A stretch of DNA of 64,000 nucleotides, taken from a virus. The stretch lies in the IMG/VR virus record IMGVR_UViG_3300043399_000297, positions 180,023 to 244,022 of that record, one strand, 5' to 3'. A model generated the notes under the pieces. That model saw only the letters and a list, made by a program, of their open reading frames with translations, did not search any database and was not told the origin of the DNA. Positions within the stretch are counted from its first letter, which is position 1. The number at the start of each line of letters is the position of its first letter. Below, piece by piece: positions 3,969-53,722 of this stretch. The translations under genes were made by a program, and so were the position numbers.

Positions 3969-4892
3969 GTGAAGAATCGGTTGTGGGTTGAGAAATATCG
4001 CCCATCTAAAATAGATGATTATGTGTTTGTTGACGATAGACAAAAGAACACAGTTGAGCAGTGGATCAAAGACGAGTCTATTCCCCATCTATTGCTTTCA
4101 GGCGATCCCGGCACAGGTAAAACTACATTAGCTAAGGTTCTTATCAATGAACTTAATGTAGAAGACTTTGACGTTCTAGAAATCAATGCTAGTAGAGAAA
4201 ATGGCATTGACAACCTTAGAGAAAAAATCAATGGCTTTGTGCAGACTATGCCTTTCGGCAAGTTCAAGGTTGTTTTGTTAGACGAAGCTGACTATCTTAC
4301 TCAGCCAGCACAGGCAGCATTGCGTAATGATATGGAAGCATATCACGAAACAGTCAGATACATTTTAACTTGTAACTATCAGCACAAAATTATTCCTGCG
4401 TTGAAAAGTCGTTGTCACGAATTCCATATCGCAAAGCCCGATATCACGGAATACACAACTCGTGCCGCTACTGTTCTTATAAACGAAAACATTGAGTTTG
4501 ATCTAGATGACCTTGACACATATGTTCGTGCCTGTTATCCCGATCTAAGAAAGTGTTTGAATCAGTTACAGCAGAATAGCATCACTGGTTCTCTTGCCAA
4601 GCCACAGTCAACTGGTAGTGGCGAAGATGAACTATTGGTCGCTGCTACAGAATTGTTCAAGAGTGGTAAGATTCTTGAAGGTCGTCAGCAATTGTTACAA
4701 TATATCAGTCTATATCCAACTCGGGTAGAAGATGTGGTAAGATGGGCATATGACAATCTTGATCTTTGGGGTAAGACTCAAGAGAGCAAAGATGCTTCAA
4801 TTGTGATCATTCGCAATACGTTAGCAAACCTGCCCTTAGTAGGGATACCTGAAATAAGCATTGCGGCCATGATGGTTGAATTATGTAGCTAA
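3969..4892 (+). CDS. 44: Clamp loader large subunit (gp44-like AAA+ ATPase)
   Basis: 307 aa RFC-small-subunit-type AAA+ protein that loads the sliding clamp at primer ends. It starts WVEKYRPS, the signature of the family; Walker [10 protein letters not shown] at residues 45-53; Walker B VVLLDEAD near 101-108; sensor 1 YILTCNY; arginine-finger motif SRC near 148. Length fits T4 gp44 (319 aa). GTG start. The partner subunit (gp62-like) was not found in this window. The last 12 bp overlap the convergent endonuclease gene, which therefore sits at the very end of an essential gene. Confidence 0.92.
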
Positions 4893-5552
4893 TTCCCAAC
4901 CCTTGACTGATTTGTAATATTTTGTGCGGTTGACCAAATTATAAATATTACTGGCTGAGGCACTGATGTAATTACAGAAATCGTATTTTGTCATGGTAAC
5001 TACTTCTTGAGTTTCTTTGTTTCTAAATGAATATAAAGTGTGATCATATTGGTGGTTACCGGCACCTGTTCTATTTCTACTTCTAGTCGCTCGTACTTCC
5101 GGAGAACTCATACGCTTCTTAAACGCCTCACGACTTTTTTGGCTTTTTGCAGGGTGTCTTTCACCCAAAGACAGCATTCTCTCGGATTGCAGTGTTCGGT
5201 ATTTTTCTAATTTGTTGTGACTGTTCTCGCCTGATATTCTTAGAATATGCTCTTCGGTATGCTTATATCCGCTACATCCGTCTCCACCGTCGGTGAGATT
5301 TCGTAGTATGCCGGTGTCATTATCTACTCTACCGTACCATCGTATCATCCGTCTTTCTAACGCAAACGCTCCGGTTTCGGTGAGATTTTGTTCAAGAAAT
5401 ACAATTCTTGAAAGGTCATCTGGAACCTTAAGTTTTCCGTGATTAGCAAACGCTCGGTTCCCGTTGCCTTTTCCTATGTAATAAGGGGTTCCTGCTTTAG
5501 CTGTAGTTGAGTCATTTTTTCGTAGATATGCGTAGACATAATAAATATTCAT
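4881..5552 (-). CDS. GIY-YIG homing endonuclease
   Basis: 223 aa. N-terminal GIY-YIG nuclease domain: YVYAYLRK (residues 5-12) and TPYYIGKG (about 23-30), catalytic-type Arg/Glu further on ([14 protein letters not shown]) and the conserved TDGGDG. The C-terminal half has basic NUMOD-like DNA-binding segments ([22 protein letters not shown] end). The AAGGAG ribosome binding site and start follow a late promoter and a two-hairpin leader shared with three other endonuclease genes here. Its 3' end overlaps the clamp loader gene by 12 bp in the opposite direction. Closely similar to the gene at 27271. Confidence 0.88.
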
Positions 5553-5610
5553 GCTGATTCTCCTTAACAGAATTAGAGTGAGTAGGAATGCCAGTTCCGT
5601 GACTCACAAC
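5553..5610 (-). promoter_or_regulatory. Conserved two-hairpin mRNA leader, copy A
   Basis: Between the late promoter (5611-5618, minus strand) and the ATG. Hairpin I pairs GTGAGT with ACTCAC, with an inner GGAA/TTCC stem and CTGGCA loop; hairpin II pairs ATTCT with AGAAT around the Shine-Dalgarno. Same architecture as the leaders near 18374, 27923 and 53654. Confidence 0.6.
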
Positions 5611-5618
5611 TATTTATA
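5611..5618 (-). promoter_or_regulatory. Late promoter TATAAATA (minus strand)
   Basis: Exact late consensus on the minus strand. The predicted start site lies at the foot of leader hairpin I of the GIY-YIG gene. Confidence 0.7.
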
Positions 5619-5643
5619 CTAGGAGGTTATTATCCGTTACTTA

Positions 5644-5946
5644 TTGATTAGTTTCCTCAGAAAGATGGGTGGACAGATTGACGAAATGGTCAGTGTTGGC
5701 AAAAGAGTTCGTGATAGTGATAAGATCAATGCTAATGTCATTCTTGACTTTGCTGATAAAAAGATTATTAAGTGTATCATTGAGGGCAATGAACACGACT
5801 CTACCTTTGAGCAACTAAGAGATTATTATTATAAGGTCTATCCTAACTTAATTGATCAGTTAGAGCGTGAGGCTAATATTACTGCAATGCAAGAGCAGCC
5901 AATGAATAGACAGCAGCGTAGAGCGCAAGAAAGTAAAAAGAAGTAA
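5644..5946 (+). CDS. Hypothetical phage protein
   Basis: 100 aa if the TTG at 5644 is used; an ATG at 5665 would give 93 aa and neither has an ideal ribosome binding site (AGGAGG lies at 5621). Mixed alpha/beta, with a basic helical C-terminus (NRQQRRAQESKKK), often seen in nucleic-acid-binding phage proteins. It lies between two minus-strand genes and ends inside a terminator hairpin. Confidence 0.55.
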   Translation: MISFLRKMGGQIDEMVSVGKRVRDSDKINANVILDFADKKIIKCIIEGNEHDSTFEQLRDYYYKVYPNLIDQLEREANITAMQEQPMNRQQRRAQESKKK

Positions 5947-15585: not shown

Positions 15586-15615
15586 AGAAAGGGTTAACTT
15601 AAGTTAACCCTTTCT
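15586..15615. terminator. Bidirectional rho-independent terminator
   Basis: Perfect 30-bp palindrome (AGAAAGGGTTAACTT and its complement) followed by TTTTT on the plus strand. It ends the glycosyltransferase gene and overlaps the end of the convergent HNH gene. Confidence 0.85.
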
Positions 15616-16222
15616 TTTTACAATGATCAAAGTGATGTTTTCTCATTCCGCCGGACATCCCTGTTTTGTTACAATGAGGACAAGTTACTATTTCTCTAGC
15701 CGGATTCTTATCACCTAACTTAGATGCTGATAAGTTGGCTCGCGTTTCATCCGTTCGCTTCTGTCCTTTTCCTCCTTTTGATATGAGGGCTTTAGACTCT
15801 TCCGAATGAGTTCTGCCGTAAAAGGGATTGTTATTCCCTTTATTTTTACCCCTCATGAATTCACTATGAAATCGGGCTGCTTCTGCTCTAATATCAGAAT
15901 AGTCATTATTGAATGTTCGTTGTTGTGTTCTACTCTGCGGATTACACATTCTAACCGCCGCGGCTAGCATCTTTCTTTTGGGTTCAATGTTATTAACCAT
16001 ATTAGGTAACAACAAATGAACTTCCAGATGTTCGTTTGCTGTTAGCCACACTAGATTGTCCGCAGTATTTTCTCCTCCCAATGATTTAGGAATAATATGG
16101 TGTCGTTCTACATAGCCTACGATAGCTTTTGCTTGTTTCCTAGATAGATAGCCAGGTGCTCTTGTATTTGCTATATCTACTATACGATAGTATTGTTTTG
16201 TATAATCAGTGTCATTAAACAT
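15599..16222 (-). CDS. HNH homing endonuclease
   Basis: 207 aa. HNH core: VERHHIIPKSLGGEN, NLVWLTANEHLEVHLLL (about residues 48-85). Then NUMOD3-type segments (GKNKGNNNPFYGRTHSEESK) that contact DNA in homing enzymes, and a C-terminal zinc finger CPHCNKTGMSGGMRKHHFDHC. A late promoter lies 15 nt upstream of the start, but the two-hairpin leader of the other endonuclease genes is absent. Inserted between a glycosyltransferase and a head-type gene. Confidence 0.88.
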   Translation of the reverse strand: MFNDTDYTKQYYRIVDIANTRAPGYLSRKQAKAIVGYVERHHIIPKSLGGENTADNLVWLTANEHLEVHLLLPNMVNNIEPKRKMLAAAVRMCNPQSRTQQRTFNNDYSDIRAEAARFHSEFMRGKNKGNNNPFYGRTHSEESKALISKGGKGQKRTDETRANLSASKLGDKNPAREIVTCPHCNKTGMSGGMRKHHFDHCKKKGLT

Positions 16223-17725: not shown

Positions 17726-18373
17726 TCACTTTGACTTACACTTGTCTCCGTGCCATCGCTTAAAGTTTGACGCTCCCTTACCGGAAGTTCCGCAATGTTC
17801 ACACTTCCAAAGTTGCTGGGATGGGTGAGTTCCGTTTTCTAACATTTCGCGGTTTCTTGCTTTATGGTAGCCTGCACCTTGCCAAGGATGAGTGCCGTTC
17901 TTTACGCGGTCACTAGCAACACTTGTTCCATCCGGCCTCTTTAAAAATGGATTAGTGCCATCTTTAACTCTATCACTAGTTCTACTAGTACCGTCGGCAC
18001 GCCTAAGAAAAGGATGAGTGCCGTTCTTAACTCTCTTTAAGTTTCGTTTAGTAGCAGCTTCTTTGTCTAAGAAATGATGGACGCCAGCCGCCAGCCTTTC
18101 GTATGCTGCCTTTCTTGACAATTCCGACTTTTCTTCCGGCGTTATTTGTATATGCCCGCTGATCTTTAAACAAGCGGACCAATCACCCTGTGAATAATGA
18201 ATGTCATAGTGTTCTTTGATAGATACCGCGATTAGATTATTAGGGTCATTATTTGAACGCTTACCGTCGATATGATGAATCTCATACTTTCTTCCGGTTT
18301 CGTCTTTCGGTATTTGACCATAATGATGTTCATATATTCTACGGTACTTGTCTGTACCACAATAAATACACAT
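17726..18373 (-). CDS. HNH homing endonuclease with NGTHPF repeats
   Basis: 215 aa. HNH core: YGQIPKDETGRKYEIHHIDG, KRSNNDPNNLIAVSIKEHYDIHYSQGDW (residues about 16-65). It is followed by five degenerate repeats containing NGTHPF or DGTNPF (about residues 90-190) and a zinc finger CEHCGTSGKGASNFKRWHGDKC. The repeats are probably DNA-reading modules. It is a close paralog of the gene at 53054 and shares its two-hairpin leader and late promoter. Two bases separate its stop from the convergent gene. Confidence 0.88.
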   Translation of the reverse strand: MCIYCGTDKYRRIYEHHYGQIPKDETGRKYEIHHIDGKRSNNDPNNLIAVSIKEHYDIHYSQGDWSACLKISGHIQITPEEKSELSRKAAYERLAAGVHHFLDKEAATKRNLKRVKNGTHPFLRRADGTSRTSDRVKDGTNPFLKRPDGTSVASDRVKNGTHPWQGAGYHKARNREMLENGTHPSQQLWKCEHCGTSGKGASNFKRWHGDKCKSK

Positions 18374-18440
18374 AGCTGATGCTCCTTGTAAGCGTTAGAG
18401 TAGTTGGGTATTACCAGTACCGTGAACTACATTATATTTC
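18374..18440 (-). promoter_or_regulatory. Conserved two-hairpin mRNA leader, copy B
   Basis: Hairpin I: GTAGTT/AACTAC with inner GGTA/TACC and loop CTGGTAA. Hairpin II: ACGCT/AGCAT around AAGGAG. Compensatory changes relative to copies A and C. Confidence 0.6.
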
Positions 18441-18448
18441 TATTTATA
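18441..18448 (-). promoter_or_regulatory. Late promoter TATAAATA (minus strand)
   Basis: Exact consensus upstream of leader copy B. The opposite strand has a weaker ACTAAATA at about 18448-18455, which could serve the gene starting at 18484. Confidence 0.65.
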
Positions 18449-18483: not shown

Positions 18484-19806
18484 GTGAGTTCAATAATGAA
18501 AGGGATCGTAGACGAAGGCGAGAGCGTATCCGTTCTTTACATTGACGGGAAACCATCAACAAAGTATTCTAAATCACACGAAGCAGAAGAAGATGCAAAA
18601 CGACTTCGCGTAAAGTTTCCGAACAAGAAGATTGAAATCAAGCAAGAAGTTCGTGAGGTTAAGCAGCGTTTAGACCCTAAGTGCTGGAAAGGTAAGCACA
18701 AAGAAGGCACAAAGATTAAAGGCGGTGTAAGAGTTAATAATTGCGTCCCAAATGAAAGTGTTGAAGAAGCGTCAAGTCCTGCACAACAGGCTGCTATTGC
18801 CATCAATATGAAAAAGCAAGGTAAAAAGCCAAAGAACGAAGATTATACCGGACAATTCACAGCAGAAAGAACAGCAGCAATTAATCCATACGGTGGATTA
18901 AAAGATCGTCAATATAGAGGTGCAATTAATGAAGGTGATGACAATTACGAAATTGGTTCTCAGCTTTTAGACATTGCATATGAAATGAAAGAACTTGCTG
19001 AAAGTGCAATGCGTTTAGTTAGAGGAACACCTGAAGAAGGTAGAGCTAAATCATATTGGTATCCTCATATCTTAATGGCAATCACTGATGATCATGGTTA
19101 TATGGGTAAGAATATGGCTACACTGATGGGGTCTGCTGAAGCACTTATGAGTGGTGATGAAGATGAGATAGGTGAGGCTCGCGACCCTGCAATGGTCAAA
19201 GCAGCAAACAAGAATCTAGTAGACTTAGCATCCGGTGAAGTTCGTCGCAGAGAAATAGCAAGAAGAAAAGCAGAAAAAGCACAAAGGCAAGCGTCAAAAT
19301 ACCTAGCTAGTCTAGATAGACCAAAGAAAAAATCTAAGCAAGATTTACAAATGCTTTGGTCTAAGATTGAGGGCGTAATTTCCAACTCTTTCCCAGACGG
19401 TGATCCATATGATCAATTATGGCCATATATGCAAAAGAATGGATTTACACAAGATGATGTAGAACGAGCATCAAAGATGAATGGCTATAAGGATCTATGG
19501 GACTATTGGGATACGTTAGCTAACGATATTGAAACAGATATGCGGTATGATTGGGAACATAGTGGTCGTCAAGGTCCTGAACCAAAGATACATAGATTTG
19601 GAATGAATGAAACACCAGACACTTCTGGGCCAATTGGCACTCAGCCCGGCGGTTGGCGCAGAACAGATATGGATGAAGATACTTCATTTGGAACTGGTAT
19701 GGGACAAGGTGGCAATGCCGGCCAATCATATCGTAAGTTCAGACCAAAAAGTGCAGGAACTTTCAAAGAAAGTGCAATCTTAAAAGGAATCACTAGTGAG
19801 AGCTAA
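18484..19806 (+). CDS. Putative head/prohead core protein
   Basis: 440 aa from the GTG at 18484, chosen for the AAGGAG ending 6 nt upstream; an ATG at 18463 is in frame. Contains CWKGKHKEGTKIKGGVRVNN near residue 62, a motif I have seen in many structural/core proteins of marine T4-like phages. Then a charged helical region (RREIARRKAEKAQRQASKYL) and a Gly-rich C-terminus ending KESAILKGITSES. No catalytic site. The stop overlaps the start of the amidoligase-like gene. Confidence 0.5.
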   Translation: MSSIMKGIVDEGESVSVLYIDGKPSTKYSKSHEAEEDAKRLRVKFPNKKIEIKQEVREVKQRLDPKCWKGKHKEGTKIKGGVRVNNCVPNESVEEASSPAQQAAIAINMKKQGKKPKNEDYTGQFTAERTAAINPYGGLKDRQYRGAINEGDDNYEIGSQLLDIAYEMKELAESAMRLVRGTPEEGRAKSYWYPHILMAITDDHGYMGKNMATLMGSAEALMSGDEDEIGEARDPAMVKAANKNLVDLASGEVRRREIARRKAEKAQRQASKYLASLDRPKKKSKQDLQMLWSKIEGVISNSFPDGDPYDQLWPYMQKNGFTQDDVERASKMNGYKDLWDYWDTLANDIETDMRYDWEHSGRQGPEPKIHRFGMNETPDTSGPIGTQPGGWRRTDMDEDTSFGTGMGQGGNAGQSYRKFRPKSAGTFKESAILKGITSES

Positions 19807-22084
19807 AGAGTTCCTACTAGAAAATACTGTTGATGAAGCTAAGATGAATCCATCTAGCTTTGCCAACGCCATTAAAGAAGGCGGGGATAAAGGTGTATTG
19901 GTTGGCTTTGAGTTTGAAGTATGCATACCTAAAAAAACATTAAATATGGTACCTAAAGAAGAAAAAAAATATGATGAAATTATAGCTGAGGCATTCAAAT
20001 CAGAAATTAGCTTATATGATTGGTACTACACATCTAATGGCCCATATTATAGTATATCAATCACGCCTAGAAAATTTGATATATTATTCAAAGTTAAGCC
20101 TGGTATGGGTAAGTTTAACACTTTTAGTGATTTGTTAAGATCAATGTCTAAAGACGAAAAAGAAGAAAATGAAACATATGGCGATTTAATGAAGTTAATG
20201 TTTGATAAACATCCTGAGGCGATTGAAGAAAAGTTTTTTAAGTATTTTGACGTAGAAGATCCAAAGAAAGTATATAAATTCTTAGCAGGAACAGAACAGT
20301 TTAATCTTGATAATCAAGATGAATATGATTACTGGGATAATCATAATCCAAATTATGATAAAGCTGCTACTGTCTTAAAGCCTGCGGTTGAGCAAGCGAT
20401 GAACGCTGAAGTAGAGGTATTTCACGAATACCACGAATCTAGCAAAAACACTACAAGTTGGTACATTGAACCAGATGGCAGCTTAGAACCAAATAGTGGT
20501 GATGCCGCAGCAGAAATCGTAAGCCCGCCACTTCCAGCTGATCAAGCAATGAATGCGTTAAAAAGCTTTTATGCAATGGCTAAGCAACTTAAACTATATA
20601 CGAGCGCAGATAACAGCACAGGTTTGCATATCAATGTAAGTATTCCAGGAACATTAGATGTATTGAAACTTGCTGTGTTCTTAGGGGAACAATATGTATT
20701 AAAATATTTTGGTCGCGAAGATAATGAATATGTAAAAAGCGTAATACAAACTTTGCAAGGTTATACTCCATCACAAGTCTATAAACAAACAGCTAATCGC
20801 AGTAAAAAGAACAAAAAAGTTCAACATCAAATTAATTACAAAGCATTGCAAAAAATAATCAATAAGGAAACTGGTGATCACTTTGCAAGTATTAGCAGTA
20901 ATGGCAAATATATTAGCTTTAGGCACGCCGGCGGAAATTACTTAAGTGACTATAGTAGTATAGTCAACATTGTAGGTAGATTTGTTCAAGCAATGATTAT
21001 TGCAAGCGATCCTGAAATGTATAAGCAAGAATACTTAAAGAAGCTTGTTAAATTATTTGGTGCTCCTGTTACACAACCAACTGGCATTAAAGCTGTTAGA
21101 ACAACTATTGATCAAATAAAGCAAAATGGTATCCCTGTTATACAAATAGCTATGATGTATCCGAAGAAACGCACTGCAACAAATTGGGACAATCTAGAAC
21201 AAAACATAATTTATGGTCATACTCGTTCATATAAGGTAAATCAATATTTTAATGTGGGCGGCGAAGAAATACAGAAAAATAGCCAGCAAGCTAAAAATAT
21301 GATCTTGGAAAAACTCAGAGGTAATGCAAGGCAGGAAGTGTCTAAGTTAGGAGTAGAAAACTTTGCTCTTTCTATCATATATCCTAACTTAGACACATTG
21401 CCACAATTATATCAATTTTTTAAAGAAGGTGGTGAATTAATTTATACTACTTTCGGATCAACAATCACCGGTGACAAATACCCGGCAGCATTAAGTGAAG
21501 ATAGTCTACCCTACAATGATCCTATAGTGCAGCAATATGTCAGGAAATTGATTGCTCAAAGTAAATCTACTGTGGACGAAACAGTAAGCACTGGACAAGG
21601 TGGCGGAAGTGCTGGAAATAATGGTGGTCAAATGGTAGGTGGACCCACTACATATGAACAAGAATATAACAAGTTTAAAAGGAAGGGTCCTCGTCGTATC
21701 ATTGCGATGACTTATGAAGATCAAGGTGCTGAAACTATCACGTTGACTGACTTATATAAACAAGAGAAACCAGACGACAATGAGCAAATCTGGGACTACG
21801 GTACTATGATATGGGATACTCCATTTGAAATTAAAAAGATCACACCTAGAGAACTAGACTTTAATTTAGCGCATCAATATGATGTAGAAGGTATTGAAGA
21901 CTTGTTTGATAGGATGGAACCAGAACAACACGACATTGTTAATGCATACATCAAAGATCCTAATCTTTCAAATTATATTATCGTATTAGATAATGGGCAC
22001 ATTGTAGATGGTAATCATAGAGCTATTGCAGCGGTATTAACTAAAAAACCATTAAGATATATAGATATCGGGGAGGAAGGATAA
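19796..22084 (+). CDS. Amidoligase-like protein with C-terminal ParB-like domain
   Basis: 762 aa. Residues 1-10 (MRAKEFLLE/N) look like a T4 capsid-targeting sequence with an LLE cut site. An amidoligase (COOH-NH2 ligase, glutamine-synthetase-like fold) follows: VGFEFE at 36-41, EPDGSLEP near 225, AAEIVSPPL near 240, STGLHINVS near 274, then a GNYLSDY segment. The C-terminus (about 660-762) carries IIVLDNGHIVDGNHRAIAA, the core of ParB/sulfiredoxin-like domains. Such ligases join an amine to a carboxylate using ATP. GTG start with AAAAGGAA. Paralog of the gene at 22887. Packaging and substrate are inferences. Confidence 0.6.
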   Translation: MRAKEFLLENTVDEAKMNPSSFANAIKEGGDKGVLVGFEFEVCIPKKTLNMVPKEEKKYDEIIAEAFKSEISLYDWYYTSNGPYYSISITPRKFDILFKVKPGMGKFNTFSDLLRSMSKDEKEENETYGDLMKLMFDKHPEAIEEKFFKYFDVEDPKKVYKFLAGTEQFNLDNQDEYDYWDNHNPNYDKAATVLKPAVEQAMNAEVEVFHEYHESSKNTTSWYIEPDGSLEPNSGDAAAEIVSPPLPADQAMNALKSFYAMAKQLKLYTSADNSTGLHINVSIPGTLDVLKLAVFLGEQYVLKYFGREDNEYVKSVIQTLQGYTPSQVYKQTANRSKKNKKVQHQINYKALQKIINKETGDHFASISSNGKYISFRHAGGNYLSDYSSIVNIVGRFVQAMIIASDPEMYKQEYLKKLVKLFGAPVTQPTGIKAVRTTIDQIKQNGIPVIQIAMMYPKKRTATNWDNLEQNIIYGHTRSYKVNQYFNVGGEEIQKNSQQAKNMILEKLRGNARQEVSKLGVENFALSIIYPNLDTLPQLYQFFKEGGELIYTTFGSTITGDKYPAALSEDSLPYNDPIVQQYVRKLIAQSKSTVDETVSTGQGGGSAGNNGGQMVGGPTTYEQEYNKFKRKGPRRIIAMTYEDQGAETITLTDLYKQEKPDDNEQIWDYGTMIWDTPFEIKKITPRELDFNLAHQYDVEGIEDLFDRMEPEQHDIVNAYIKDPNLSNYIIVLDNGHIVDGNHRAIAAVLTKKPLRYIDIGEEG

Positions 22085-27270: not shown

Positions 27271-27888
27271 CTACTTCTTTCTTTTGTATATTCTTCCCGG
27301 AACATAATCCGGGGGACAGGTATCAGAAACAACAGAGAGGATACCGTTATTATACCACTTCATTCCGGTTGATCCGCGGGTCTTCTCTCTTTTCTTGCCA
27401 AACATAGGGTTTCCGGCCCCCTTCATTTTTTCGCTATGATCTGGACGTTTGGTTCCTCTTTTTAATTCCCGAGCTTTTCGTAGGTTTTCTAATCCTCGCC
27501 CTGTTATTTTCTTTCCTTTTTTTGCAATGCTAATTGCCTTTTTTCTTTCTTCAGTGTGAGGACCTTTAGGTACACCAAGTTGAGCTATACTTCTTGCACG
27601 ATTGGATTCTTCACTTTGTATCATTCCAGATACGCCATCGCCGCCGTCAGTGCGATTCTGTAATATGCCGGTACCTATATCTTTTCGACCGTGCCACTTA
27701 ATGTACCTCCTCTCTAGTGCGAATGCTCCTATTTCAGTCAATCCTGCTTCTAATATAATTACTCTAGAATAGTCAGATGGAGTTTTGAATTGTTCGTGTT
27801 TGTTATGTTTCCACCTTCTACCTTTTCCTTTACCAATATAATAAGGTGTTCCGTTTTTTTCGGATAAACGCATATACATAAAAACCAT
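27271..27888 (-). CDS. GIY-YIG homing endonuclease, probably frameshifted at its N-terminus
   Basis: 205 aa in the open frame. [28 protein letters not shown] and TDGGDGVSG match the GIY-YIG protein at 4881 closely; the C-terminus has NUMOD-like repeats (GRGLENLRKAREL, GAGNPMFGKKR). The ribosome binding site and leader point to an ATG at 27922, which reads MNTIYFYSNKPDGFYVYAF..RK, a full GIY motif. That frame runs out of register at an A7 run (27854-27860, minus strand); one A fewer would fuse it to the open frame as [12 protein letters not shown]. Either a broken gene, transcript slippage, or an assembly error. Confidence 0.75.
   Translation of the reverse strand: MVFMYMRLSEKNGTPYYIGKGKGRRWKHNKHEQFKTPSDYSRVIILEAGLTEIGAFALERRYIKWHGRKDIGTGILQNRTDGGDGVSGMIQSEESNRARSIAQLGVPKGPHTEERKKAISIAKKGKKITGRGLENLRKARELKRGTKRPDHSEKMKGAGNPMFGKKREKTRGSTGMKWYNNGILSVVSDTCPPDYVPGRIYKRKK
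27854..27860 (-). other. A7 homopolymer at the frame change of the GIY-YIG gene
   Basis: Seven A on the minus strand. With six, the leader-proximal ATG at 27922 would be in frame with the nuclease domain. Confidence 0.6.
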
Positions 27889-27922
27889 CAGGCTTGTTGG
27901 AATAGAAATAAATAGTGTTCAT

Positions 27923-27984
27923 CGCTGATACTCCGTTTCAGTATTAGAGAGAATGGGTATTACCAGTACCGCGATTCTCAACTA
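27923..27984 (-). promoter_or_regulatory. Conserved two-hairpin mRNA leader, copy C
   Basis: Hairpin I: GAGAAT/ATTCTC with inner GGTA/TACC and loop CTGGTAA. Hairpin II: ATACT/AGTAT around ACGGAG. It ends at the ATG at 27922. Confidence 0.6.
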
Positions 27985-27992
27985 TATTTATA
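27985..27992 (-). promoter_or_regulatory. Late promoter TATAAATA (minus strand)
   Basis: Exact consensus, followed by leader copy C. Confidence 0.65.
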
Positions 27993-52673: not shown

Positions 52674-53061
52674 AACCAAGACTGATATAATCAAACTCAT
52701 ACTTGATGAAGCCAAGGATAACCCAGACTTTCCTTGGAAGGATGTAGCGTCGGATAAGCTGATCTTTGACTGGTTTGTTACCGGCAGAGCAGGATCAGGA
52801 CTAAGACTTACTGATGCAGGAGCTAAAGCATTTGAGACTGCAAAGATAGCGCACTATGACTTTGACTTCACCCCTCCTAACAATACTAAGGGCGCTGCTA
52901 ACTGGGGAAGATATACTCTCATACTTGACAAAAAGGTCAAATGCCCTTACTATGTTGGCGTGGGTAAGAAACAACCTTACATTAGATTATACGACCATCG
53001 TACTGCGATGATGTTAACTCTTTATGGAGACCTTGAGAGTTATTTGGAATCTGTCAAGTGA
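52660..53061 (+). CDS. Conserved phage hypothetical protein
   Basis: 133 aa. FDWFVTGRAGSGLRLTDAGA resembles a winged-helix-like segment; then beta-strands RYTLILDKKVKCPYYVGVGK and PYIRLYDHRTAMMLTLYGDL. Possibly nucleic-acid binding. Ends overlapping the convergent HNH gene by 8 bp. Confidence 0.6.
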   Translation: MTYPKTKTDIIKLILDEAKDNPDFPWKDVASDKLIFDWFVTGRAGSGLRLTDAGAKAFETAKIAHYDFDFTPPNNTKGAANWGRYTLILDKKVKCPYYVGVGKKQPYIRLYDHRTAMMLTLYGDLESYLESVK

Positions 53062-53653
53062 CACGGTGCTTACAGCTATCACCGTGAAACCTAGTATAGT
53101 TTCCTCTCCCTTTGCCAATTTTACCACAATGTGGACAGGTCCACATTATTTGACTAGGTGCATGTGGCCCTGCAAATGGATGATTGCCGTTCTGTAATTG
53201 AGTATACACTGGGTTGGAATTACCGATAAAATGATGAGAGCCGCTTGCTAGTCGTCTTTGTGTAGTTGCTCTACTAATCTCGCCGCCCAGAAACGGATGA
53301 GTCCCTTCGATCACTCGTTTCTGACCGCTTCTGCGTTGAATCTCTCCTCCCAAAAAGTTATGAGTTCCGTTTTTTACCTGCTCTTTTGCGTTCCGACTAG
53401 CCAGGTCTGATATTTCTTTTGCAGTTAGTCCTAGTTTAAAACTCAGACGATGGCAGGCAGCCCAGTCACCTTGTGAATAATGAATGTCGTAATGCTCCTG
53501 CATTGATACTGCTTTGAGGTTTAAGGGAGAGTTATTTGAACGGTCGCCGTCGATATGATGAATATCATATGACCGACCTTGGTCATCTTTGGGAATAGGA
53601 CCATAGTGGTTTTCGTATATTTTGCGGTAATTGGTTTTTCTATAAATAGTCAT
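53054..53653 (-). CDS. HNH homing endonuclease with NGTHPF-like repeats
   Basis: 199 aa. HNH core: YGPIPKDDQGRSYDIHHIDG, DRSNNSPLNLKAVSMQEHYDIHYSQGDW; repeats NGTHNFLGGE, EGTHPFLGGE, SGSHHFIGN, NGNHPFAGP (about residues 95-165); C-terminal zinc finger CPHCGKIGKGRGNYTRFHGDSC. Close paralog of the gene at 17726, with the same leader. The repeats differ between the two, as expected if they read different targets. Confidence 0.88.
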   Translation of the reverse strand: MTIYRKTNYRKIYENHYGPIPKDDQGRSYDIHHIDGDRSNNSPLNLKAVSMQEHYDIHYSQGDWAACHRLSFKLGLTAKEISDLASRNAKEQVKNGTHNFLGGEIQRRSGQKRVIEGTHPFLGGEISRATTQRRLASGSHHFIGNSNPVYTQLQNGNHPFAGPHAPSQIMWTCPHCGKIGKGRGNYTRFHGDSCKHRVT

Positions 53654-53714
53654 CGCTGATGCTCCTTGTAAGCGTTAGAGTAGTTGGGAACGCCAATTCC
53701 GCGAACTACATCTT
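53654..53714 (-). promoter_or_regulatory. Conserved two-hairpin mRNA leader, copy D
   Basis: Hairpin I: GTAGTT/AACTAC with inner GGAA/TTCC and loop TTGGCG. Hairpin II: ACGCT/AGCAT around AAGGAG. The 3' half is identical to copy B; the inner stem is like copy A. Confidence 0.6.
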
Positions 53715-53722
53715 TATTTATC
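53715..53722 (-). promoter_or_regulatory. Late promoter GATAAATA (minus strand)
   Basis: GATAAATA on the minus strand, directly upstream of leader copy D. Confidence 0.6.

What the first reader, a model, noticed from the sequence alone, without database searches (positions are those of the whole stretch)
5553..5620. A structured 5' leader shared by unrelated homing endonuclease families
Seen directly: four minus-strand endonuclease genes (two GIY-YIG ending at 4881 and 27271; two HNH ending at 17726 and 53054) have the same leader between a late promoter and the ATG (5553-5618, 27923-27992, 18374-18448, 53654-53722). Hairpin I has an outer stem that changes in a compensated way (GTGAGT/ACTCAC, GTAGTT/AACTAC, GAGAAT/ATTCTC), a 3-nt bulge CAC or CGC, an inner stem GGAA/TTCC or GGTA/TACC and a YTGGYR-type loop. 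Hairpin II (ATTCT/AGAAT, ATACT/AGTAT, ACGCT/AGCAT) encloses the Shine-Dalgarno. Covariation is the classic sign of selected RNA structure. Because the two nuclease families are not homologous, the leader travels or is kept as a module. It could control late-only translation, bind a phage or ribosomal protein, or mark the mobile unit.
Basis: partly seen in the sequence, partly recalled or inferred. Interest (0 to 1): 0.88.

Follow-up and report, generated by a model that had tools for sequence, protein, structure and literature searches.

The report
Antisense hairpin RNA fronting homing endonucleases
Many freshwater jumbo-phage contigs carry a short, strongly covarying two-hairpin RNA element in front of selfish DNA-cutting genes of several unrelated families; the conservation shows that the folded strand is the opposite of the one that makes the protein, so the element most likely encodes a built-in antisense RNA.

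Summary
Four minus-strand homing endonuclease genes (HEGs) in the window share a late-promoter/two-hairpin leader, and the same 244 kb record has three more. It sits before GIY-YIG, several HNH, and rarer Vsr/MTES-like nuclease genes. Rfam has no match.

Covariation is overwhelming (79 sequences: 98.3% of cells paired, 328 double-change cells, 0/500 shuffles). Mismatches in the mRNA are almost all A.C (about 156) and almost never G.U (2), so they are G.U pairs on the opposite strand. A second late promoter (TAAATA, read as TATTTA in codons 1-4) faces back into the leader, about 5 nt before the structure. It is kept in all three reading frames and in all 12 leaders that lost the upstream TAAATA.

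Best explanation: the module makes an approximately 55-70 nt structured antisense RNA covering the HEG Shine-Dalgarno, limiting HEG translation late in infection, like IS10 RNA-OUT. The strand and structure are shown; antisense transcription and repression are inferred. The main rival is a promoter plus stable 5' UTR for the divergent neighbour gene.

The parts
5542..5547 (+). inferred antisense late promoter TAAATA inside codons 2-4 of GIY-YIG 1 (reads TATTTA in the gene)
5553..5607 (+). structured antisense RNA segment, copy 1 (on the minus strand: the GIY-YIG 1 leader, hairpins I and II)
5611..5618 (-). late promoter TATAAATA of GIY-YIG 1
4881..5552 (-). GIY-YIG-type homing endonuclease 1 (223 aa); no Pfam match of its own, relatives are GIY-YIG
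18363..18368 (+). inferred antisense late promoter TAAATA inside HNH 1
18375..18430 (+). structured antisense RNA segment, copy 2 (leader of HNH 1 on the minus strand)
18441..18448 (-). late promoter TATAAATA of HNH 1
17726..18373 (-). HNH homing endonuclease 1 (215 aa, Pfam HNH_3)
27909..27914 (+). inferred antisense late promoter TAAATA at the start of GIY-YIG 2 (unusual 9-nt spacing)
27924..27979 (+). structured antisense RNA segment, copy 3 (leader of GIY-YIG 2 on the minus strand)
27985..27992 (-). late promoter TATAAATA of GIY-YIG 2
27271..27922 (-). GIY-YIG homing endonuclease 2, frameshifted near its N-terminus (longest frame 27271-27888)
53643..53648 (+). inferred antisense late promoter TAAATA (in TATAAATA) inside HNH 2
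53655..53709 (+). structured antisense RNA segment, copy 4 (leader of HNH 2 on the minus strand)
53715..53720 (-). late promoter TAAATA (GATAAATA) of HNH 2
53054..53653 (-). HNH homing endonuclease 2 (199 aa, Pfam HNH_3, I-TevIII-like, about 38% identity)

Best explanation
A mobile regulatory module travels with free-standing homing endonuclease genes (HEGs) of unrelated families in T4-superfamily aquatic phages. It has two late promoters facing each other across about 55-60 bp. One drives the HEG mRNA, which by T4 late-promoter spacing should start at the base of hairpin I. The other lies in the first codons of the HEG and drives an antisense RNA that should start at GCUG, opposite the last bases before the ATG. 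The antisense strand is the one selected to fold: GCUG, hairpin II, UUAGA, hairpin I with an internal R-Y pair flanked by two bulged Gs, then a U-rich tract that overlaps the HEG promoter. The stable antisense RNA is complementary to the whole HEG leader including the Shine-Dalgarno, and most likely represses HEG translation, increasingly as genome copies build up, as RNA-OUT does for IS10 transposase. Shown: the element, the covariation, which strand is selected, conservation and spacing of both promoter-like boxes, association with HEGs, and presence/absence of the cassette. Inferred: transcription from the inner box, the RNA ends, the repression.
For: Strand: in 157 distinct hairpin I sequences (55 outer stems) sense non-Watson-Crick cells are A.C 31 against G.U 0 in the outer stem (17 distinct stems against 0), 37:0 in the R-Y pair, 4:0 in inner pairs 1-3, and 84:2 in stem II. 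On the antisense strand these are G.U pairs: 98.3% of 1257 cells paired, 14 of 16 pairs with double changes, covariation score 0.814 against 0.280 shuffled and at most 0.143 slid. Antisense MFE is lower in 191 of 210. Promoter: TATTTA follows CAGC by 5 nt in most and 4-6 nt in nearly all copies of the set not selected for it; it is kept in three reading frames (MxIY, MYL, MIFI-type), and the Ile codon inside it is ATT in 61 of 65; it remains in 12 of 12 leaders lacking the upstream TAAATA. TAAATA is the permutation most enriched upstream of other phage genes, and NATAAATA is the known cyanomyovirus late promoter (PMC2984593). The spacer before hairpin I is A-rich (70-74% A against 30-38% at generic sites), giving a U-tract after hairpin I on the antisense strand. 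Precedents: IS10 RNA-OUT (PMC5006887); CfrI antisense to a HEG in phage S-PM2 (PMC2984593). Both upstream-gene orientations keep the A.C bias and TATTTA.
Against: No transcript data exist here; the inner TAAATA was never shown to fire. The antisense 3' end is undefined: the U-tract is interrupted, weaker in the 3-nt spacer class, and the consensus terminator scan does not call it at the one locus tested. In 58 of 80 scored divergent loci no TAAATA lies between leader and neighbour start, so the antisense transcript could instead serve the neighbour. The loop-proximal inner pair shows the opposite tendency (8 G.U, 3 A.C). Apical loops within a genome are not more diverse than shuffled expectation, so orthogonal pairing specificity is not supported. 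A divergent relative in Pseudoalteromonas phage XG4 has hairpin I but no TATTTA.
Confidence: 0.5

Rival explanations
1. Outward promoter plus stable 5' UTR: the inner late promoter and the antisense hairpins serve the gene next to the HEG on the opposite strand. An insertion that separates that gene from its promoter supplies a new promoter and a hairpin-protected leader, lowering the cost of the insertion.
For: The upstream neighbour is divergent in 131 of 190 loci. 58 of 80 divergent loci with a scored start have no other TAAATA between leader and start. At 5621-5644 an AGGAGG and start lie just downstream of the antisense leader. The review PMC2988022 stresses that HEG insertions can displace or add promoters.
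Against: About 31% of loci are co-directional yet keep TATTTA (18 of 21 in the unselected set) and the same A.C bias. At the HNH 2 site the neighbour keeps its own late promoter (TATAAATA 53761) as in relatives without the insert. Such a role does not explain why the RNA covers exactly the HEG leader and Shine-Dalgarno.
Confidence: 0.25
2. T4-type read-through switch: in transcripts from upstream, TAAATA pairs with UAUUUA to close a multibranch structure that hides the start codon; late transcripts begin inside it and are translated, as for I-TevI.
For: TAAATA and TATTTA are complementary and bound the leader in nearly all copies. The mechanism is established for I-TevI, I-TevII, I-TevIII, segB and mobE (PMC2988022).
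Against: TATTTA is kept in all 12 leaders lacking TAAATA and the deviant forms (TATATA, TACTTA) are not compensated. The bases flanking the two boxes do not covary. A six-pair A-U stem is weak. It does not explain the A.C bias of hairpins I and II, which lie wholly inside late transcripts.
Confidence: 0.1
3. Bottom-strand single-stranded DNA hairpins act in recombination or mobility of the cassettes (compare bulged hairpins of integron attC or IS200/IS605 ends).
For: G.T is also tolerated in ssDNA; bulged hairpins with variable, always-paired stems and both loop orientations (TTGGCG and CGCCAA) recall such sites; one module sits before unrelated nucleases.
Against: Fixed spacing to a promoter-like box, Shine-Dalgarno and start codon fits RNA better; no tyrosine or Y1 recombinase was looked for or found; homing needs no such end.
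Confidence: 0.08

Closest known systems
IS10/Tn10 RNA-IN/RNA-OUT (PMC5006887)
   Same: Two convergent promoters at the 5' end of a mobile element's enzyme gene; a structured antisense RNA (69 nt there) complementary to the translation initiation region; its 3' part overlaps the sense promoter.
   Different: Phage late-type promoters, two hairpins rather than one, shared by unrelated nuclease families; antisense transcription not shown here; no sequence relation tested.
CfrI antisense RNA of cyanophage S-PM2 (Millard 2010, via PMC2984593)
   Same: Antisense RNA of a T4-like phage running across a homing endonuclease gene; co-expressed with it.
   Different: CfrI is about 225 nt, lies between psbA and one HEG, and is described for one locus; no two-hairpin module. 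Sequence not compared here. Whole-record searches of the cyanophages S-SRM01, ACG-2014f, B23 and S-N03 with our model found nothing.
T4 HEG leader hairpins of I-TevI, II, III, segB, Aeh1 mobE, Aeromonas phage 25 seg43 (PMC2988022)
   Same: Late promoter plus RNA structure at the HEG 5' end.
   Different: There the sense RNA hides the RBS in early transcripts and the late promoter cuts the hairpin; here the hairpins lie wholly downstream of the late promoter and are selected on the other strand.
PeSL promoter-early stem-loop cassettes of T4-like phages (Arbiol 2010, Comeau 2014, cited in PMC4503421)
   Same: Short mobile promoter plus stem-loop cassettes dispersed in T4-type genomes.
   Different: PeSLs use early promoters with a terminator and are not tied to HEGs; ours uses late-type promoters and was found in front of HEGs.

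Membership tests
IS10-type cis-antisense RNA control | convergent promoters flanking the enzyme gene's 5' end | tested here: inconclusive
   promoter-like TAAATA boxes on both sides, facing inward at fixed spacing; promoter activity not tested
IS10-type cis-antisense RNA control | antisense strand folds stably and is the strand selected | tested here: met
   98.3% paired, A.C:G.U asymmetry, lower MFE
IS10-type cis-antisense RNA control | antisense RNA is made and represses translation in trans | not testable with these tools
   needs RNA-seq and reporter assays
T4 I-TevI-type RBS-sequestering leader | late promoter lies within the hairpin so that late mRNA lacks its 5' arm | tested here: not met
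   hairpin I starts 3-5 nt downstream of TAAATA in most copies and lies wholly in late RNA
T4 I-TevI-type RBS-sequestering leader | sense-strand pairing conserved | tested here: not met
   A.C frequent and G.U almost absent on the sense strand
CfrI | antisense RNA spanning psbA and a HEG | not tested
   S-PM2 sequence not compared; the window neighbours examined (phoH, clamp-loader-type gene, DNA polymerase) are not psbA
Rfam families | covariance-model score at or above gathering threshold | tested here: not met
   no match in the window; only sub-threshold chance hits up to E = 5 in the leader loci
Free-standing homing endonuclease cassette | insertion absent from orthologous site in relatives | tested here: met
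   HNH 2 and GIY-YIG 2 sites are empty in the relatives examined

The most novel reading that the evidence does not exclude
A previously undescribed, widespread RNA family: a transferable late-phage antisense regulator that unrelated homing endonucleases have adopted as a common copy-number brake, possibly the module through which new HEG cassettes are assembled.
Probability: 0.45. Interest if true: 0.88.

Novelty: new variant of a known kind. Interest (0 to 1): 0.78.

Why it matters
It would add a strongly supported RNA family absent from Rfam, present in up to 13 copies per phage genome record. It would also suggest that unrelated selfish endonucleases share one transferable regulator, and that this regulator is read from the strand opposite to the mRNA. 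It makes a long-open question, how free-standing HEGs limit their own toxicity, directly testable. It also illustrates that G.U versus A.C counts can reverse the strand assignment of a 'structured 5' leader'.

Tried and rejected
YUNR U-turn loop as an antisense recognition motif: rejected, because loops vary freely once the search does not demand YTGG. Long-range TAAATA:UAUUUA stem: no covariation. Selection for different apical loops within a genome: 5 identical pairs observed against 4.3 expected. Outer stems are shared within a genome slightly more than by shuffle (114 against 78, P 0.001; some of the genomes are related). A conserved intrinsic terminator: not called by the consensus scan at the one locus tested. 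Known cultured carriers: blastn found none; only Pseudoalteromonas phage XG4 has a divergent copy among eight phages searched whole. Cellular genomes: 87 pattern hits in GTDB contigs but only two with the full structure, both in metagenome-assembled bins. The closing pair A(TCTAA)-Y(YCAGC) was left out of the strand count because the search fixed the A.

Full report
Observation. The four leaders are present as described. Their core pattern occurs exactly four times in the 244 kb virus record that holds the window, all before these genes, and the reversed control pattern is absent. A covariance model from relatives finds seven copies in the record (three more at 65226, 154074 and 157041 of the record, all before HEGs). 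Rfam has no family for it.

Spread. Nearly all hits of the second pattern have hairpin I with different stem and loop sequences. The same second pattern in 257 billion bases of cellular genomes gave 87 hits, of which two have the structure, both in metagenome-assembled bins. With the antisense model, all 50 virus records searched (each chosen because it held a copy) contain it, 1-13 copies each. In 37 of 40 loci then fetched, regular-expression parsing finds the full module at the start of a HEG-like ORF; two of the three missed loci (L376, L408) show degenerate copies by eye, and the third is the divergent XG4 copy. The window phage belongs to the T4 superfamily: its DNA polymerase is 44-47% identical to those of Sinorhizobium phage Phosso and Agrobacterium phage Atu_ph07.

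Genes. Downstream proteins match GIY-YIG, SegE GIY-YIG, HNH, HNH_3, HNH_5, I-HmuI-type, NUMOD3, and single MTES_1575 / Vsr / TnsA-like hits, so at least two and probably three unrelated nuclease folds share the module. In relatives of this phage the HNH 2 and GIY-YIG 2 sites are empty; at the HNH 2 site the neighbour's own late promoter is intact in both forms.

Which strand. In 157 distinct hairpin I sequences, pairs that are not Watson-Crick on the sense strand are A.C (31 in the outer stem, in 17 distinct stems; 37 in the R-Y pair; 4 in inner pairs 1-3) and never G.U. In stem II it is 84 to 2. Transversion mismatches are nearly absent in the outer stem. On the opposite strand every A.C is a G.U. 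Counted there, 79 sequences give 98.3% paired cells, 14 of 16 pairs with double changes, and a covariation score far above shuffles and slides. Counts of sequences are not independent events, but 17 distinct stems against none is 8e-6 under equal odds. The loop-proximal inner pair is an exception (8 G.U, 3 A.C), and the next pair, U.G or C.A, is uninformative. The asymmetry holds whether the upstream gene is divergent (46:0) or co-directional (20:0). Antisense MFE is on average 4.6 kcal/mol lower.

The second promoter. TATTTA, the complement of TAAATA, lies mostly 5 nt after CAGC regardless of where the start codon falls, and is read in three frames (MxIY, MYL, MIFI-type). Codon third positions inside it hardly vary (Ile ATT 61, ATA 4; codon 2 always T), while the Tyr third base just outside does (TAT 57, TAC 8). 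It persists in 12 of 12 leaders lacking the upstream TAAATA, and the flanking bases do not covary, which argues against pairing between the boxes. TAAATA is specifically enriched upstream of ordinary genes of these phages (0.18 of occurrences against 0.04-0.12 for permutations; 0.36 in the window), and NATAAATA is the reported late promoter of cyanomyoviruses (PMC2984593). With T4 late spacing (established knowledge) the two predicted start sites are the first base of hairpin I and the G of GCUG, the two ends of the structured segment.

Mechanism. The best fit is a cis-encoded antisense RNA. It is structured, complementary to the whole HEG leader including the Shine-Dalgarno, with an A-rich sense spacer giving a U-rich antisense tail. 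This is the architecture of IS10 RNA-OUT, whose 3' part overlaps pIN (PMC5006887). Late in infection many genome copies would raise the antisense concentration in trans and cap HEG expression. The step from structure to repression is inference. The main rival, an outward promoter with a stable 5' UTR for the divergent neighbour, is not excluded: 131 of 190 neighbours are divergent and 58 of 80 scored lack another TAAATA. But co-directional copies keep everything, and the HNH 2 neighbour has its own promoter.

Relation to known systems. T4 HEGs use sense hairpins that hide the RBS in early transcripts, with the late promoter inside the hairpin (PMC2988022); that defining geometry was tested and not met. 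CfrI of S-PM2 shows that antisense RNAs to phage HEGs exist (PMC2984593), but it is described as one 225-nt locus and was not compared by sequence. The searches of the paper library turned up no description of this module; subscription papers are not held.

Noticed in passing
27271-27922 (-): The second GIY-YIG gene is frameshifted: the leader ATG opens a 30-codon frame (MNTIYFYSNKPDGFYVYAFIRKK...) while the catalytic part continues in another frame from 27888.
   Followed up: partly
15599-16222 (-): A fifth HEG (HNH/NUMOD3) with TATAAATA 22 nt before its ATG but without the two-hairpin module.
   Followed up: no
L370:1030-1110 (Pseudoalteromonas phage vB_Psh_XG4, PP712099.1): A divergent relative of the module (model E 8.5e-7) in a cultured phage, before a GIY-YIG gene: hairpin I with CGC/C internal loop, but TGTAG instead of TCTAA and no TATTTA.
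   Followed up: partly
L022, L076, L089, L097, L205, L226 leaders: A class without upstream TAAATA has GTCAA(C/G)-A-rich sequence instead; GTCAAG/C also occurs upstream of TAAATA in other copies. Meaning unknown.
   Followed up: no
family-wide, e.g. L003 and L124: Apical loops occur in both orientations (TTGGCG and its reverse complement CGCCAA), as expected from hairpin flipping or template switching.
   Followed up: no
L012, L052, L084, L119: Deviant TATATA in place of TATTTA is synonymous (Ile ATA for ATT) in these leaders.
   Followed up: no
5644-5946 (+): An unannotated plus-strand ORF (about 100 aa, TTG start, AGGAGG at 5621) begins just beyond the antisense leader of GIY-YIG 1 and could be served by the inner promoter.
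   Followed up: partly
19796-22081 (+): Large protein with an amidoligase domain (Pfam Amidoligase_2).
   Followed up: no
downstream proteins of the module, 4 of 147 scanned: Four match DUF7487 (best E 1.6e-38), a family of unknown function that may be an unrecognised HEG-type nuclease.
   Followed up: no
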